Origin: Brevinema andersonii
GTDB taxonomy: Bacteria; Spirochaetota; DYKD01
Direction of reading: 5' to 3'
Length of the DNA stretch: 40,478 nucleotides
NCBI GenBank assembly: GCA_020722765.1
Contig: DYKD01000025.1
Coordinates: 1-40,478 of the forward strand
Below, one piece after another: positions 10,648 to 40,316 of this stretch. How positions within the stretch are numbered: the stretch's first letter is position 1; each line of letters opens with the position of its first letter. Under the pieces are notes generated by a model. The model saw only the letters and a list, made by a program, of their open reading frames with translations. It had not been told where the DNA came from and searched no databases. Position numbers and translations under genes: made by a program.

Positions 10648-11123
10648 AGATAGGTTCAGCCATAATCCCAGCGGTCTTTGTCCTCATTGTCCTCGTAAGC
10701 ATGCCTTTGCTCTCCATCAATCAAAGGTTGAAAGCCCTGAACGGCACAGGCATCATTGAATTTGAACTGCTCTTCTCCACGGATAAATGCAATATCGTCA
10801 TGGATTCCTGGGGAGATAATGGGAGAGCCCTTGTCCAAAGGTCTATTTTTTGGGATTATCCTTACTTGGCATTGTATACCATCCTCCTGGTGCTGGTCGC
10901 GTCGCGTTTTTCCTGCAAAGTCGCCACTCTCCCATCGCTTCTCACTGGTTCCGCGGATATCCTTGAAAATATCCTGATGACTCACTGCATCCAAAAAAAG
11001 CTCCCGAGACTCACCCCGGTTTTCAGTTCTGTGGCAGCGGTTAAATTCGCGCTTCTGACCTTGACTATTGTCCTTATTCTCCGGTGTGTGGCTGCAAAAT
11101 CAAAAAAAGGCAACACCGTATGA
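10644..11123 (+). CDS. predicted integral membrane protein
   Basis: MKIGSAIIPAVFVLIVLVSMPLLSIN...YLALYTILLVLVASRF...AAVKFALLTLTIVLILRC hydrophobic segments. Confidence 0.65.
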   Translation: MKIGSAIIPAVFVLIVLVSMPLLSINQRLKALNGTGIIEFELLFSTDKCNIVMDSWGDNGRALVQRSIFWDYPYLALYTILLVLVASRFSCKVATLPSLLTGSADILENILMTHCIQKKLPRLTPVFSSVAAVKFALLTLTIVLILRCVAAKSKKGNTV

Positions 11124-12623
11124 GGCTTATCCAAGTTCCCCAGTTTAGCCTGCTTTGGTTGAGTTCGGCAACTCTCTTTCTTGGTCTAGCATTGGCCCTA
11201 TACTTCCATAACAGGAAGAGTCCCCAGAATATCCTCTTCAGCATCTATCTGACTCTTGTCTTCATCTTCACATTGCTCGGATTCTTCACTCTTGTTCTCG
11301 GTTTCCCTGCGCCGATTATGGTCTCTCTGCAAATGATCAACAACTGTTTCCTAGGGATTGTCTTTGTCTTCTTCACGAGGACATTCATAGAAGAAACACG
11401 CAAGCCCAATCCCGTGGAACTTCTCTGGTTTGTTCCAGCCTTATATTTTATCATCTATGGCTTGATTCGGACATTTATCCCCGGATTCGTAGAACAGGCA
11501 AAACTCGACATCACGGTTGTGGATTTCAAGCTCGTTAGGAAGATTGACATCCATTATTACATTTACACGGCCTTTCTTTTTTACTCTCATCTAATGGGTT
11601 TTATCACGCTTTTCAAAGCCCATCGGGCGGCGGTCTCTCCTGATGAAAAATGGAGAATCCGGACAATTCTTATTGCCCTGCTTTTCGGAGTAGTCCTTGT
11701 TCTCATATTCAATAATCTTTTCACCATCCTCGGGATTCCTGTACAAGGGGATTATACATTCTTCGTCATTCTTATTACACTGACAGTCATCAGCATTTCT
11801 CTCATGCGGCACGGAGCATGGAGGATGGAGAAACTTTTTGATATCATAAGGGACAGGGAGAAAAAACTCACAGAACGGAGCAACATCATCGAGTCCGAAC
11901 TTGACATGGCCCGACTCATTCAAAAAAACCTCATACCTTTGAAACCTCCCGAAGTTCCAGGCTTTTCCATTTTCTGCCCATTATCTTCCTATGGATAAGA
12001 TCGGTGGGGATTATTATGACTTCCACACTACGCGTGACTCCCTTGGTATCCTCATTGCTGATGTGTCTGGTCATGGCATACCTGGAGCCTTCCTTGCCTC
12101 CATGACAAACATGGCGTTTAAACAAAATGTTGAAAAGTCCCAGAATTGCACAGAATTGATGAGTGCACTTGATCGGATCCTGTCAGCCAAAAGTGTCAAG
12201 TCGATGTTTGTTACTGCCACATATTTGCATCTCAATCTTTCAGATATGAAATTCGAATGCTGTAACCGTGGCCATTGCAGACCATTGCTTCATCGAAGGC
12301 AGACTGGTTTGGTCCATGAGATTGGCAAGAAAGGACCGCCTCTTGGAATTGGCATGGACTCTTTCGGGGAGGGGACGCTTGAAAATCAGGGAGAGGAGTT
12401 GCTGTCTGGAGACCGGTTCATCCTTTTCACTGACGGGATTGTTGAAGCGATCAGCCCGGACAAGGAAGAATTTGGGGAAGATCGATTGAGGGAAGTCATT
12501 GTTGAATCGTCCTTGTTGAATACTCATGATTTGCTCAATTCTATTGTGGATGCACATTCCAGTTTCATCAAGGGTATGGAACGGTGCGATGATATGACTC
12601 TGGTGATAATAGATGTGCTGTGA
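11120..12623 (+). pseudogene. membrane-anchored SpoIIE/PP2C-type phosphatase, frameshifted near 11980-11990
   Basis: N-terminal TM region (11120-11998), then IGGDYYDFHTTRDSLGILIADVSGHGIPGAFLASM (11991-12623) in the +1 frame; one extra nt near CCATTATCTTCCTATGGATAAG. Confidence 0.8.
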
Positions 12624-17447: not shown

Positions 17448-18245
17448 ATGACAGATTCTCAGGAGCCAGTACGGAAAATCAAAAAGTGGCATTTCATTAT
17501 TCCTTTTTTTTATGGTCAGAATCTTCATGTAAATAGGAAGGGGGGCGCACCTAAAAACAAGAAAATTGAATATCTGAGAAGCACGCTTGAATCTCTTGTA
17601 AAACATTTTCCAGATCCTGACATTCATCTTTTTGTGCGTGATGATGCCAGTAAAGAGATGGCGTCTATCTTCCCGTTTTTGGTTCATAGGCTGGAATGCC
17701 CTCCAAAAGAACTTCCTTATAGGATGCTTCTGGAAGTTTCAAAATTCAAATATAACTTTAAAAATGAAGATATTCTCATGTTCACTGAGGATGACCATAT
17801 ATTGTATATGGCTGATACTGTAAAGGAAGACATTGAGGATGCTGGAAAAGATCTTATCTTCTCACCTCACAGATGGTCCAAACTTTTCATGAAGTTCCGT
17901 ATAAAGGGAAGACCTCAATACATATTGAATGATGTGAACGGAGTTCTTGATAATATCGATGTTAAGTCACAGACACCACAGATTATTCCTTTCAGGCACA
18001 AATGGGAAATCCAGGATACCAGGAATGGCGCCTACGCGGCATGTTGGGCTATGAGGTTTTCAACATTCAAGAAAATCGACCTTTCACTCAAATCGCCTCC
18101 AGATGCATGGCTGGAATTGGGTTCTTATGCAGTGTTTGACAAGTATCCTGTCTTGAAACTTTCCCTCAAGGATAATGAGAATCCAGGTTCATTCATAGTT
18201 GATCATCTTTCAGGGTATGATTATAATAAAAGAATCCTTTTCTAG
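17448..18245 (+). CDS. glycosyltransferase-like protein
   Basis: HLFVRDDASKEMAS...DILMFTEDDHILY; GT-A-like acidic motif, family not certain. Confidence 0.4.
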   Translation: MTDSQEPVRKIKKWHFIIPFFYGQNLHVNRKGGAPKNKKIEYLRSTLESLVKHFPDPDIHLFVRDDASKEMASIFPFLVHRLECPPKELPYRMLLEVSKFKYNFKNEDILMFTEDDHILYMADTVKEDIEDAGKDLIFSPHRWSKLFMKFRIKGRPQYILNDVNGVLDNIDVKSQTPQIIPFRHKWEIQDTRNGAYAACWAMRFSTFKKIDLSLKSPPDAWLELGSYAVFDKYPVLKLSLKDNENPGSFIVDHLSGYDYNKRILF

Positions 18246-18261
18246 AAAGAACAGGATTGAT

Positions 18262-19628
18262 ATGAAAAACGGACTTTCTCTCTTTATTTTCAGACGGGAT
18301 TTAAGACTTGTAGATAATACAGGTCTGAATGAAGCCTTGCGTTCTTCAAGTCATGTCCTGCCTTGTTTTTTTTTAGACCCACGACAGTTAAATAATAATC
18401 CTTACAGAAGTGAATCCTCTGTAAAGTTCATGCAAGATTCTCTGGAAGATTTGTGTGGGGCTTTCAAGGGAAAAGGTGCAAGATTATATTTTTTTGACGG
18501 GTCTCCAGAGAGCCTGCTGCCAGATATGATTTCTCGTTTGAAAATAAAAGCCGTTTTTTTTAATAGGGATTATACTCCCTTCAGTTTGCAAAGGGATAAG
18601 GTATTAAAATCGATTTGTGATAGGAATGGGATTGACTGTATCATTTCAGATGATGCGCTTATAAACCCACCAGAGAAAACTGTAAAGAAAGACGGTTCTC
18701 CTTATTCCATGTTCACACCATATTTCAGGAATGCTTCTTTATTCGATGGTTCAGTTCCTATCAGGGGCAGTATGTCAAATTTTTGGACAAAGAACGTGCC
18801 AGGGACCATAAAGGATTGGCGGGTGCTCCTGAAACACGGAAAAACTACGACAATCAAGGGGGGACGGTCTGAAGGGTTGAAGCTGTTATCTAAGCTTAAT
18901 TTCCAGCAAAAATATGAGACAACAAAAGACTTGCCTGTCTTGAAGACATCTCTCCTTTCAGCACATAATAAGTTTGGCACGCTCTCAATCCGGGAAGTAT
19001 ATCATGCTATAAGAAAACGGCTTGGAGTTGGGCATCCTTTACTTAGGCAACTTTATTGGCGTGACTTTTTTACTGCCATCGCGTTTTTCTTCCCTCCTGT
19101 TTTCGGTTCTCCCTTTCATGAGAAATATTCTTCAGTCAAATGGATGGATGATTCAGACGCTTTCAAAAGGAGGTGCAGGGGGAGACAGGTTTTCCCCTTG
19201 TTGATGCGGGTATGCGGGAATTGAATGCAACAGGATTCATGCATAATAGGGTGAGGATGGTTACTGCTTCTTTCCTGGTCAAGGATATTCATATTGACTG
19301 GCGGAAAGGGGAGCAGTACTTCGCAAGCAGGCTTGTTGACTATGATCCTGCTGTAAATAATGGAAACTGGCAGTGGACCGCTTCAACAGGTTGTGACGCA
19401 CAACCATATTTCAGGATTTTCAATCCTTGGAACCAACAAGTTAAGTTTGACAAAGACTGTGAGTATGTACGGAGATGGATTCCTGAATTGCGAGAGATAC
19501 CTGTCAAGTCCATTCACAAATGGTTTAGCGAACATGGCAAGTATGATGTTTCATATCCAGCTCCTATGTGTGATCATAAGGAGGAAGCGCATAGGGCTAT
19601 TATTCTATATAAGCAGGTTTTTAATTGA
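18262..19628 (+). pseudogene. phr: deoxyribodipyrimidine photolyase (cryptochrome/photolyase family), frameshifted near 19170
   Basis: SLFIFRRDLRLVDNTGLNEAL (18262-19224), then GETGFPLVDAGMRELNATGFMHNRVRM...NNGNWQWTASTGCDAQPYFRIFNPWNQ (19173-19628) in the -1 frame. Confidence 0.88.
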
Positions 19629-33587: not shown

Positions 33588-33854
33588 ATGAAGGAAAAAA
33601 CAATCACTCTTAAGAATCATAATGGGCTTCATGCAAGGCCTGCTGCGGAACTTGTCCGGTTGGCTGGATCATTCAAGGCAGAGATATTCATTATGAATGT
33701 CTCTACCAAGAATAAGGTCAATGCAAAAAGCATATTGCAGCTGCTGACTTTAGGTGCTTCGTTTGGTTCTGAACTGCATATCCATTGTGTTGGATCGGAT
33801 GAAGACAAGGCTTTGACTACTATTGTGGAATTTCTTTCATCGTCAAAACAATGA
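33588..33854 (+). CDS. ptsH: phosphocarrier protein HPr
   Basis: GLHARPAAELV His site and NAKSILQLLTL Ser site. Confidence 0.95.
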   Translation: MKEKTITLKNHNGLHARPAAELVRLAGSFKAEIFIMNVSTKNKVNAKSILQLLTLGASFGSELHIHCVGSDEDKALTTIVEFLSSSKQ

Positions 33855-34327
33855 GGTGTTTCATGTTAAAAAAAACGTTGATTATCATCCTTTTTATTGC
33901 CACAATCCTTCAGGCTCAAGATGGGACAAGTCCGGTTGCAACTGAGTACAATCCTTTTTTGGCTGGTACTCTTTCTTGGTACAGTGCGGGGCTAGGGCAG
34001 ATATATACCAGGAATTATATCAAAGGGGTTGTTTTTTTCACTGTCGATACATCCCTTTTTCTTCTAATGATTAATTCTGTAGCTGATTTTAACCTGAACA
34101 TAGATGATAAACTCGGGTTTAGTCTTAATGTCCAATTGAAAAGCCAGAAAGACATCGAATATAATTCTTTAAAAGCGGCTTTTTTCCTTGTTTCTTATGT
34201 CTCTTTTCATTTTTATAATGTTTTTGATGCGGTTCTCACATCAGCACGGAAGAATGCAAGATTATCTTTTCATACGGATCCTTTCAAACAGCAAGCAACA
34301 CTAGCTTTTTCTGAAAAGTTCAACTAA
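33851..34327 (+). CDS. DUF5683-like membrane protein (paralog 1)
   Basis: EYNPFLAGTLSWYSAGLGQIYTRNYIKGVVFF. Confidence 0.65.
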   Translation: MRCFMLKKTLIIILFIATILQAQDGTSPVATEYNPFLAGTLSWYSAGLGQIYTRNYIKGVVFFTVDTSLFLLMINSVADFNLNIDDKLGFSLNVQLKSQKDIEYNSLKAAFFLVSYVSFHFYNVFDAVLTSARKNARLSFHTDPFKQQATLAFSEKFN

Positions 34328-34336
34328 GGTGGATTT

Positions 34337-34834
34337 ATGAAAAAAACAATTGTCATTTCCCTTTTCTTGCTTTTTATTGTCGTAGGAGTGGCGTTAACCG
34401 ATTCTCCAGCCGTAAGACTTAACACTACTTACAAAGATCCTTTTCTGGCAGGTGTTCTTTCATGGGTTATGCCAGGTGCTGGTCAGATCTATTGCCAATC
34501 GTATACCAAAGGATCCGTTTTTATTTTTGGGGATATGATTGAAAAATCATCAATGGTTTTTATCCTGTTGTATCTGAATAATAAATACTTTAAGACATCT
34601 TCAGACCTTATTAGCTGGGAACGGCTTGATGTAAATGACAAGACTATTATCATTTCCTATTTTGTCTTAAGTGCCTCGTTCAAACTGTTTAATGCCATGG
34701 ATGCTGTTTTTACAGCTGAAAAATTCAATACATTACATATGAATGATAATATTGGTTTCCATTTTGATCTCAAGTCTTTAGGAGGAGGAAGTCATTTTTT
34801 AACAGCTTCCTTGACATGGTCTGAAGGATTATAA
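34337..34834 (+). CDS. DUF5683-like membrane protein (paralog 2)
   Basis: YKDPFLAGVLSWVMPGAGQIYCQSYTKGSVFIFGD, same layout as 33851-34327. Confidence 0.65.
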   Translation: MKKTIVISLFLLFIVVGVALTDSPAVRLNTTYKDPFLAGVLSWVMPGAGQIYCQSYTKGSVFIFGDMIEKSSMVFILLYLNNKYFKTSSDLISWERLDVNDKTIIISYFVLSASFKLFNAMDAVFTAEKFNTLHMNDNIGFHFDLKSLGGGSHFLTASLTWSEGL

Positions 34835-37221: not shown

Positions 37222-38808
37222 GTGGCTGAAAAAAAGAACAAAAATGCTCCTCCCCAACAGGCAGATGATGATTTTCACAAGATCATAAAACTTAGTCTTC
37301 GCTCAAAGATCATTTGGCTGATTGTCATGGTCATTGTCATTATCATGCTCTTTGTCTATCGGACAATACTACGCGACGAGCGTGAGGCCTTGTTTGATTC
37401 AATGAAAAATAGCGGTGGTGCGTTGGCTACTTTGCTTGCCAATAATTCACGCGTAGCTTTGGTCAAGGCCCTTTTAGACGAGTCTGTGGATGGGCGTATC
37501 AATGAGCAGACTTATGCACAATTGAATTATTTCGAACTTGGCTTTGCAGAAACACTGGATCAGATGATTGAACAGAAGGACATTGTCTATGCAGTCATTA
37601 TAAACAAATTTGGAAATGTCGTAGGGCATTCAAAAACTGAGCCAGAGGTGATAGAAAATACTCCTTATCATCCCTTAGGGACAATACAGAACTTCAAAAC
37701 GTCATATGTAGAAGGGGATCCTATCAGACCTCTCATCCAGGACTATAATGGTGAATACTACGATCCGAAGTTAAAACAGGTTGTGACAGGAGAAATTTTG
37801 GATGTCGCTTTCCCCATGGTTGTTGATATCAAGGTGAATACACTGAGAGCCTATGAAGGTGAGGTGCATATAGGTATTTCCAAGGCTACTATCAACAAGA
37901 CCTTGCGACAAGCTGAAGCAAAATTGCAAGGAGTTGCAATCCTTTCTTTGTTAATTGGTATCTTTTTTGCCATCATTCTAGCGTCCATTATCATCAGCCC
38001 TATAAAAAAACTTGTAACTGCCATGGGTAAAATCTCCAATGGTGATTTAAAACAGAAGGTTATTGTAAAAACGGGAGATGAGGTGCAATTGTTGGCTACC
38101 TCTTTTAATAGGATGACCGATGGTCTTTCAAAATATGTCTCCGCAGGTCTCGTCAAAAGATTGATGAAACAGGAAGGTCTGTCTTTGGGCGGTTCTTACA
38201 AGAAAGTCACAATCATGGAATCGGATCTTAGGAATTTTACTGGGACCTCAGAAAAGATGAAACCAGACGAGGTGGTCAGTTATCTTAACGAATATCTTGA
38301 TATCATGACAAAAATAGTCTTGAAGTATGGCGGTGAGGTGGATAAGTATATTGGTGATGCTATCTTGGCAGAATATGGCCTATTTGATCCCAATATCGAA
38401 AACCTGCAGGAGCATACAAAGAATTGTATAAGGGCCTGTGTTGAAATGAACCAGGCAATGATCCAGTTCAATGAAAAACAGATTGAGAGAGGCAGGAATG
38501 TCGTTCGTTTCGGTGTTGGGATAAATACAGGGGATATCATTGTAGGCAATATGGGTTCAACAGAGCGTATGGACTATACAATTATTGGCGATAACATGAA
38601 TCTTACAGCTCGAATATGTGATCACGCAGGAAAAGATCATAAAGAAGATAATGGTAACATTGTACATCTGAGGAATATCCTTATCACTGAACCGACATAC
38701 GAACTTGTCAAAGATATTGCAGTTGTTGAAGACAAGATTGTACATATAAAGGTCAAGGGGAAAGAAAAGCCTATAAAAGTCTATCAGGTTTATGATGTAA
38801 GAGGATGA
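37222..38808 (+). CDS. HAMP-domain class III adenylate/guanylate cyclase
   Basis: TIMESDLRNFTGTSEK, GGEVDKYIGDAILAEYG, GINTGDIIVGNMGSTERMDYTIIGDNMNLTARI; GTG start. Confidence 0.93.
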   Translation: MAEKKNKNAPPQQADDDFHKIIKLSLRSKIIWLIVMVIVIIMLFVYRTILRDEREALFDSMKNSGGALATLLANNSRVALVKALLDESVDGRINEQTYAQLNYFELGFAETLDQMIEQKDIVYAVIINKFGNVVGHSKTEPEVIENTPYHPLGTIQNFKTSYVEGDPIRPLIQDYNGEYYDPKLKQVVTGEILDVAFPMVVDIKVNTLRAYEGEVHIGISKATINKTLRQAEAKLQGVAILSLLIGIFFAIILASIIISPIKKLVTAMGKISNGDLKQKVIVKTGDEVQLLATSFNRMTDGLSKYVSAGLVKRLMKQEGLSLGGSYKKVTIMESDLRNFTGTSEKMKPDEVVSYLNEYLDIMTKIVLKYGGEVDKYIGDAILAEYGLFDPNIENLQEHTKNCIRACVEMNQAMIQFNEKQIERGRNVVRFGVGINTGDIIVGNMGSTERMDYTIIGDNMNLTARICDHAGKDHKEDNGNIVHLRNILITEPTYELVKDIAVVEDKIVHIKVKGKEKPIKVYQVYDVRG

Positions 38809-38814
38809 GAAGGG

Positions 38815-39117
38815 ATGAATTACTCTGATTTAGTGAAAAAAGCTGCGAAAGAGACAAAGCTAACACATAAGACCACAAAAAGAGCTCTAGACCTATTTCT
38901 TTTAAAGATCAGGCAGGAGTTAGACTCTTCAGGAAAATCGCGGATCACTGGTTTTGGGACCTTCAAGTCAAAGATGCATAAGGCTCGTGAAGTTATTATT
39001 CCTGGTACTTTAGAGAAAAAGTTCAAAACATCCCATTATTCAGTGCACTTTACACCAGATAGGATTTTTAAACGAAAATTCACCTTGATAAAGAATAAGG
39101 CCAAGGAGCAGGCGTGA
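38815..39117 (+). CDS. HU/IHF-family-like protein lacking the canonical GRNPxTG arm
   Basis: SDLVKKAAKETKLTHKTTKRALDLFLLKIRQEL...SRITGFGTFKSKMHKAREVIIPGT. Confidence 0.8.
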   Translation: MNYSDLVKKAAKETKLTHKTTKRALDLFLLKIRQELDSSGKSRITGFGTFKSKMHKAREVIIPGTLEKKFKTSHYSVHFTPDRIFKRKFTLIKNKAKEQA

Positions 39118-40316
39118 ATAAGGTTTCCTTGAAGACTATATCTTCAAAAATCAAGATAAAACCGGCGCAAATGGAAAAGATCGTATCAGTATTTTTCCAG
39201 GAAACTGCGAATGCGCTTGCTTCACAAAAAAAAATCCGAATTCCTGGAATTGGATTAATGAAAGCTGATGAGAGGAAGGCTTATGTTGGCAGAAACCCAT
39301 CAACAGGCGCTAGTATCGAGATTCCTGTAAAAACCAGGATTCAATTGAAAACCTCTCCTGCCTTCAAACATTTTTTAGACAAGAAATTAAAGAAACAGCA
39401 GGATATTGAGTTACAGAAATATAAGGAAGAGAAAGAGAAAGCTAAGCTTATCCCGTTTGATAAAGGACTGAAGCCAGAACCGGAGGAACAGTCTGATAAG
39501 ATAAAAAGCGATTTAAATGTACCAAAAACCAGCGTTGCTCAAAATATGAATGGTAGTATGGGCGAGAGTGATATGTTGCCTGGATCGGAAATGAACCATG
39601 AAGAGCAAGCCTCTTTTTTTAATGAAGACTTCAAAGCAGCCCAGGAAATCGTTGATCCTATCGATGTCCATGCTGGGAATGGCGCTTTTGAAAAAGAGTT
39701 TACTATACGTGAAATAGCTGACCAGACAGCACGCAAGGTTCAGAATAAGATGCTGATTGTTTTTGGTTCAGGGGCACTGGCTGTCATCATACTTGTTTTT
39801 GTGGTCTTCTTTTCCTATTTCAATAGCACTTCTTTTTATCATTTTATTAAGTCCAGTGTCAATAAGGTTAACGAAGAAAATAACCTTACTTATGAGCAGA
39901 TAGACATGCTTGTCATGGAACGGATGAAAGAGCTCCGCTTGGACATGAGCCAGATGAATGACCTGTACAAACAGGAATTGTATTCCTTGCAAGATGTTGC
40001 CCAGAAAAAAATTAACGACAAGATCCGTGCAGATGTGAAGAAGGAGATGAAGAAGCTTAATTCAGGTATAAGAAGCGGTTGGAAGAAAAGCAATACAGGG
40101 AATCCATACATAAAGATAGTTAGATACAAGGTTCGAAAAGGGGATAATCTCTGGAAAATAGCAGAAAGCAAATCAAAAAATCCTTATAATTGGGTTGGTA
40201 TCTATCAGACGAATGGTCGAAAAATAAGAAATCCACATCTGATCTATCCGGGGCAAGAAATCCTGATCCCTATCATCATAGAAAAAGTTCAGGTAAAAAA
40301 GAATATAAAACGTTAA
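39114..40316 (+). CDS. HU-domain / transmembrane / LysM fusion protein
   Basis: N-terminal HU with RIPGIGLMKADERKAYVGRNPSTGASIEIP; TM IVFGSGALAVIILVFVVFFSYF; C-terminal LysM YKVRKGDNLWKIAESKSKNPYNWVGIYQTNGRKIRNPHLIYPGQEILIP. Confidence 0.9.
   Translation: MNKVSLKTISSKIKIKPAQMEKIVSVFFQETANALASQKKIRIPGIGLMKADERKAYVGRNPSTGASIEIPVKTRIQLKTSPAFKHFLDKKLKKQQDIELQKYKEEKEKAKLIPFDKGLKPEPEEQSDKIKSDLNVPKTSVAQNMNGSMGESDMLPGSEMNHEEQASFFNEDFKAAQEIVDPIDVHAGNGAFEKEFTIREIADQTARKVQNKMLIVFGSGALAVIILVFVVFFSYFNSTSFYHFIKSSVNKVNEENNLTYEQIDMLVMERMKELRLDMSQMNDLYKQELYSLQDVAQKKINDKIRADVKKEMKKLNSGIRSGWKKSNTGNPYIKIVRYKVRKGDNLWKIAESKSKNPYNWVGIYQTNGRKIRNPHLIYPGQEILIPIIIEKVQVKKNIKR

What the first reader, a model, noticed from the sequence alone, without database searches (positions are those of the whole stretch)
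39114..40316. HU-TM-LysM protein: possible direct tether between chromosome and cell wall
An N-terminal HU domain keeps the DNA-bending arm GRNPSTG, followed by a charged linker, one TM helix preceded by basic residues (ARKVQNK, inside-positive) and a C-terminal LysM. Predicted topology puts HU in the cytoplasm and LysM on peptidoglycan. HU proteins joined to SPOR (also peptidoglycan-binding) are known in Bacteroidetes-type bacteria, so this is an analogous design with a different wall-binding domain.
Basis: partly seen in the sequence, partly recalled or inferred. Interest (0 to 1): 0.7.

Follow-up and report, generated by a model that had tools for sequence, protein, structure and literature searches.

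The report
HU-membrane-LysM protein pair in spirochaetes
A spirochaete protein carries a chromosome-type DNA-binding domain predicted to lie inside the cell and a cell-wall-binding domain predicted to lie outside the inner membrane, is made together with a second chromosome-type protein, and has look-alikes across the spirochaete phylum, so it may be a direct link between DNA and wall, although nobody has yet shown that it binds either.

Summary
The GTG gene at 39114-40316 encodes HU (residues 7-86, with arm GRNPSTG), a charged linker, one membrane helix (214-232), a helical stalk and LysM (338-386). First, a complete second HU gene (38815-39117) overlaps it by 4 bases, so a heterodimer with one membrane-anchored subunit is likely. 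Second, the design is phylum-wide. The genome is a Spirochaetota MAG. I found HU-membrane-LysM(-like) proteins in about 12 family-level groups, including a large Treponemataceae-like genus and Brachyspira (one genome identified through plasmid pBHWA1). Most non-Brachyspira cases have the same overlapping upstream HU gene. HU-less homologues of the LysM half carry signal peptides, which supports HU inside and LysM outside. No Pfam or NCBIfam model covers the combination, and I found no paper on it. The tether reading fits the anatomy but is unproven. The Pro arm is lost in the three closest relatives and the HU domains are acidic and arm-less in Brachyspira, so some members may not bind DNA. 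The link to other lineages outside HU and LysM is unresolved. Verdict: new variant of a known kind (membrane-anchored HU with a wall-binding domain), not HU-SPOR.

The parts
39114..40316 (+). HU-TM-stalk-LysM protein (HU2), 400 aa, GTG start
   Evidence: orthologues with the same layout in G011, G024, G035
39132..39371 (+). HU/IHF domain, residues 7-86
   Evidence: PF00216 E=9e-16; PDB IHF/HU chains
39288..39308 (+). HU arm tip GRNPSTG (residues 59-65)
   Evidence: sequence
39414..39752 (+). charged, probably disordered cytoplasmic linker
   Evidence: pLDDT below 50 for residues 112-201; composition
39753..39809 (+). single transmembrane helix core, residues 214-232
   Evidence: hydropathy 2.96, basic N-flank ARKVQNK
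39834..40064 (+). predicted helical (coiled-coil-like) periplasmic stalk, residues 241-317
   Evidence: helices 197-256, 260-273, 278-317 in a low-confidence model
40125..40271 (+). LysM domain, residues 338-386
   Evidence: PF01476 E=5.4e-8; PDB LysM chains
38815..39117 (+). HU1: separate 100-aa HU/IHF protein, overlaps HU2 by 4 bases (GTGA); likely heterodimer partner
   Evidence: PF00216 E=1.4e-16; tandem overlap conserved across the phylum
39103..39108 (+). AAGGAG Shine-Dalgarno-like site 5 bases before the HU2 GTG, inside the HU1 gene
   Evidence: sequence
37222..38808 (+). HAMP-class III adenylate/guanylate cyclase, 6 bases before HU1; same neighbour in all four genomes of this clade
   Evidence: PF00211 1.9e-18, PF00672 6.4e-13

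Best explanation
A two-gene unit encodes an HU heterodimer of which one subunit is nailed to the envelope. HU1 (soluble) and the N-terminal HU of HU2 are made by coupled translation from overlapping genes and pair in the cytoplasm as an HU/IHF-type dimer. HU2 then crosses the inner membrane once and, through a helical stalk, places a LysM domain on the peptidoglycan. In this organism, where both HU parts are strongly basic and HU2 keeps the arm, the dimer most likely grips chromosomal DNA without sequence specificity and so ties the nucleoid to the wall. Shown by sequence: both genes, overlap, domain order, conservation. Well supported by inference: topology. Inferred: heterodimer, DNA grip, LysM binding to peptidoglycan, tether function.
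For: HU and LysM models above cut-off, single TM, basic N-flank. Both HU parts strongly basic: net +13 (HU2, first 100 aa) and +16 (HU1), against +4 for one ordinary HU sequence typed in from memory as a yardstick. Cyclase-HU1-HU2 order in G011, G024, G035, with HU1-HU2 overlapping by 4 bases in all three, as in the window, and argS following where the contig reaches that far (G011, G024). Same HU1 + HU2-TM-LysM(-like) tandem in other families: G014, G045, G010, G201, G349, G361, G001, G066, G073 and a Treponemataceae-like genus. HU1 and HU2 parts form separate groups in part of the family (HU2 core clade of 13, 93/80). LysM half exported: HU-less homologues with signal peptide or anchor (L129, L132-L134, L137-L139). 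Where no separate HU1 exists (Brachyspira, G162), at least two HU-like modules sit in one chain, as expected if a pair is needed.
Against: No DNA-binding or wall-binding data. Arm Pro lost in the closest relatives, HU1 arm-less there. Brachyspira and G162 HU regions acidic (net -4 to -6). Flank charges contradict or do not support N-in for some members (Treponemataceae-like -5/+1 and -3/+3; G011 +1/+4). The LysM part is degenerate (below Pfam) in several members. Position of the window HU2 in the HU tree unresolved, and outside HU only the LysM aligns with the rest of the family, so the window clade could be an independent fusion.
Confidence: 0.5

Rival explanations
1. The HU pair is a protein-interaction scaffold rather than a DNA grip: an HU-fold dimer on the inner face of the membrane recruits cytoplasmic partners to a wall-anchored site. 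HU folds used for protein binding are proposed for CCDC81-type proteins (from memory).
For: Arm Pro lost in G011/G024/G035 and arms deleted in their HU1; Brachyspira and G162 HU modules acidic and arm-less; what persists is HU pairing + TM + LysM.
Against: The window copies, G014, G045, G043, G201, G349, G361 and the Treponemataceae-like proteins keep an N-P arm and/or high positive charge.
Confidence: 0.25
2. A membrane-tethered regulator: the HU dimer acts at particular promoters or modulates transcription near the membrane in response to wall state or cAMP made by the neighbouring cyclase.
For: HAMP-cyclase directly upstream in all four genomes of the clade, overlapping HU1 by 4 bases in G024 and G035; a HAMP-histidine kinase next to the cyclase in the window.
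Against: The cyclase is absent from the other families' loci, so it is not part of the core; HU dimers rarely carry sequence specificity.
Confidence: 0.12
3. Inverted or cytoplasmic arrangement: LysM stays inside (as reported for the BON-LysM protein Kbp/YgaU, from memory) and the hydrophobic segment is not a true N-in anchor.
For: Weak match to the Kbp/YgaU model over its length (NF008399, 42.6 bits against cut-off 134); ambiguous flank charges in some relatives.
Against: HU-less homologues of the LysM half in other lineages start with cleavable-looking signal peptides (L138, L139); most members have a more positive N-flank.
Confidence: 0.05

Closest known systems
HU-TM-SPOR proteins of Bacteroidetes (CCDC81-type prokaryotic HU; described from memory, paper not held)
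   Same: N-terminal HU-fold, membrane helix, C-terminal peptidoglycan-binding domain; predicted role in chromosome partition
   Different: Here the HU is ordinary PF00216 (PF18175 only 10.1 bits, cut-off 35), the wall domain is LysM not SPOR, and a separate overlapping HU gene comes with it
HU / IHF nucleoid proteins (PF00216)
   Same: HU fold, G-F/I-G turn, GRNPxTG arm, two tandem subunits recalling IHF alpha/beta
   Different: Fused to a linker, TM and LysM; arm lost in close relatives; below every HU/IHF equivalog cut-off
LysM envelope proteins of spirochaetes, e.g. Borrelia BB0323 (PMC5462797, found, not read)
   Same: LysM in an exported part of the protein; the A6 profile gives weak LysM hits of E about 1e-14 in 380-400 aa frames of the small-genome family f36; identity with BB0323 not tested
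   Different: No HU hit in those f36 frames; only ordinary-length HU genes found there
HU-less LysM homologues (L129, L132-L134, L137-L139)
   Same: Same LysM and C-terminal helical domain as the fused spirochaete proteins of other families
   Different: Signal peptide or anchor in place of HU; the window protein lacks their C-terminal domain

Membership tests
HU/IHF (PF00216) | score above curated cut-off over the domain | tested here: met
   58.3 (HU2) and 61 bits (HU1) against 22.4
HU/IHF (PF00216) | arm with Pro wedge (RNP) | tested here: met
   GRNPSTG in the window HU2; not met in G011/G024/G035 HU2; HU1 keeps Pro only (IPGT)
HU/IHF (PF00216) | dimer formation and DNA binding | not testable with these tools
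   needs protein
LysM (PF01476) | score above curated cut-off | tested here: met
   33.1 against 20.9 bits
LysM (PF01476) | binds peptidoglycan glycan | not testable with these tools
   needs binding assay
HU-SPOR / CCDC81-type prokaryotic HU | PF18175 HU clade | tested here: not met
   10.1 bits against 35
HU-SPOR / CCDC81-type prokaryotic HU | SPOR domain | tested here: not met
   no SPOR hit at E<=1 in Pfam
IHF alpha/beta | equivalog cut-off of NCBIfam models | tested here: not met
   best 41.5 bits against 111

The most novel reading that the evidence does not exclude
Spirochaetes as a phylum own a dedicated, previously unnamed chromosome-to-peptidoglycan coupling device: an HU heterodimer with one transmembrane, wall-binding subunit, inherited in tandem, which mechanically fixes the nucleoid to the cell cylinder, with some lineages (Brachyspira) converting the HU part to another use.
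Probability: 0.35. Interest if true: 0.85.

Novelty: new variant of a known kind. Interest (0 to 1): 0.62.

Why it matters
How bacterial chromosomes are physically connected to the envelope is largely open, and few proteins are candidates for one continuous chain from DNA to peptidoglycan. This one is small, has a defined partner gene, and occurs in groups with cultured members (Brachyspira; a Treponemataceae-like genus), so the idea can be tested directly. In spirochaetes, where flagella turn in the periplasm around a long flexible cell, fixing the nucleoid to the wall would be physically meaningful (inference).

Tried and rejected
AlphaFold2 of the whole protein with four homologues: pLDDT 52.7, not used as evidence for fold and not sent to fold search. 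Treating the cyclase as part of the core system: rejected, it is confined to one clade. Calling it a member of HU-SPOR: rejected, both defining features not met. Counting every long-frame HU hit: rejected for the 284-311 aa proteins with a C-terminal HU and no TM (L070-L074, L084), which are another family. Counting the weak family-f36 (Borrelia-sized) LysM hits as members: rejected, no HU in frame. Showing one origin for all HU-TM-LysM proteins: the HU tree does not resolve the window pair (one of the five comparison rows, G000_hkB, was taken from the wrong strand and is meaningless), and profile comparison aligns only the LysM. Literature: the Burroughs paper on HU clades is not held; searches for HU with LysM or SPOR gave nothing relevant.

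Full report
OBSERVATION. The gene at 39114-40316 (+) encodes 400 residues from a GTG. Residues 7-86 are an HU/IHF domain (PF00216, 9e-16) and residues 338-386 a LysM (PF01476, 5.4e-8). By PDB sequence search the HU half is closest to IHF and HU chains and the LysM half to a LysM-domain protein (6ve2) and SafA. There is one strong hydrophobic segment, 214-232, preceded by TARKVQNK. The arm GRNPSTG is intact.

A complete HU gene, 38815-39117 (100 aa, PF00216 1.4e-16), ends inside the start of the LysM gene: the stop TGA and the start GTG share GTGA, and AAGGAG lies 5 bases before the GTG. HU proteins act as dimers (established knowledge), so the natural reading is a heterodimer with one anchored subunit. 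A HAMP-class III cyclase ends 6 bases before HU1.

WHERE IT OCCURS. The genome is a Spirochaetota MAG: two of the three relatives found by profile are titled 'Spirochaetes bacterium'. Three genomes from two other family-level groups (G011; G024 and G035) have cyclase, a 72-73 aa HU without an arm, then HU-TM-stalk-LysM, with HU1 and HU2 overlapping by 4 bases in all three; argS follows in G011 and G024. In the window and in G035 the contig ends too soon to check argS. Identity to the window protein is 22-27%; the Pro of the arm is replaced (KNKTTG, KNETTN, KNSKTN).

PHYLUM SURVEY. HU hits in about 296 Spirochaetota genomes, followed by reading the loci, showed further HU-TM-LysM(-like) proteins: G014 and G073 (family f15), G045, G001 and G066 (f2; the G066 gene runs off its contig after the TM), G010 (f11), G043 (f26), G201 (f30), G162 (f43), G349 and G361 (f56), ten genomes of genus g51 in f18 (eight read in full: G069, G110, G145, G345, G306, G331, G355, G385; G208 and G227 by frame length and profile), and genus g9 and neighbours in f9 (about 29 genomes by profile; a handful read). 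With f1, f12 and f22 that is 12 family-level groups. G077 of g9 holds 5.78 kb of the Brachyspira hyodysenteriae plasmid pBHWA1 at 97% identity, so g9 is Brachyspira; that f18 is Treponemataceae is my inference from genome sizes. LysM passes the Pfam cut-off in the window protein, G045, G001, G073, G162 and G201; in the others it is recognised by alignment only. In most cases outside Brachyspira, a separate HU gene lies directly upstream, mostly overlapping by 4 to 32 bases (9-12 base gap in G001, G066, G073) (the script missed HU1 of G011 and G010, seen; none was found for G306, and G043 begins at a contig end). In Brachyspira and G162 two or more HU-like modules sit in one chain.

TOPOLOGY. 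N-flank charge exceeds C-flank charge in most members, for example +7/-2 (G201), +9/0 (G008), +4/+1 (G045), and +2/0 net in the window, but not in the Treponemataceae-like proteins or G011. An independent argument: the profile of the LysM half of these proteins also finds HU-less proteins that start with a signal anchor (L129, L132, L133, L134, L137) or a cleavable-looking signal peptide (L138, L139). That half is therefore exported, which puts HU inside. This argument comes from the other families; the window clade joins them only through its LysM.

DOES IT BIND DNA? For the window pair it is plausible: +13 and +16 net charge and an intact arm on HU2; HU1 keeps a Pro (IPGT) but not the RN. 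Against a general rule: arms degrade in the closest relatives, vanish in their HU1, and Brachyspira and G162 HU regions are acidic (net -4 to -6). The conserved core is HU pair + TM + wall domain, not DNA bending.

ANCESTRY. A maximum-likelihood tree of 47 HU domains gives a core HU2 clade of 13 (f15 G014, f2 G045, f30, f18, f56; support 93/80) and HU1 groups of its own, but does not place the window HU1 or HU2. One comparison row in that tree (G000_hkB) was read from the wrong strand and should be ignored. One origin for all is possible, not shown; repeated fusion is the alternative.

KNOWN RELATIVES. No Pfam or NCBIfam model describes the combination. HU-TM-SPOR of Bacteroidetes (known to me from memory; the paper is not held) works on the same plan, but the present protein fails both of its defining features (PF18175, SPOR). 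I found no paper on HU-LysM in spirochaetes in the held library, which is limited to open-licence papers.

VERDICT. Observation confirmed; interpretation partly supported. Topology about 0.9, heterodimer about 0.7, DNA binding by the window pair about 0.65, tether as the biological role about 0.5.

Noticed in passing
window 11084-11998 and 11991-12623 (+): Apparent single membrane-bound SpoIIE-type phosphatase gene split into two overlapping frames; the second half is PF07228 (8e-40), so a frameshift by mutation or assembly error.
   Followed up: partly
window 18199-19224 and 19173-19628 (+): DNA photolyase split into two overlapping frames: PF00875 plus start of PF03441, then the rest of PF03441. 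A second frameshift in the same contig.
   Followed up: partly
L070 1350-2201, L071 1515-2390, L072 237-1172, L073 2771-3631, L074 1515-2369, L084 2337-3212: Another unnamed spirochaete HU family: soluble 283-311 aa proteins with HU at the C-terminus (residues about 185-276) and no TM; in three loci (L071, L074, L084) a divergently transcribed neighbour encodes a conserved protein ending in a similar '(E)ELLxxVxxxLSxxFxEINKT' tail.
   Followed up: partly
L129 (215 aa), L132, L133, L134, L137, L138, L139: HU-less relatives of the LysM half with a conserved C-terminal helical domain; an uncharacterised exported LysM family of spirochaetes.
   Followed up: partly
window 33851-34327 and 34337-34834 (+): Two adjacent related small membrane proteins (weak DUF6677/DUF5683 matches, below cut-off), apparently a tandem duplication.
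   Followed up: no
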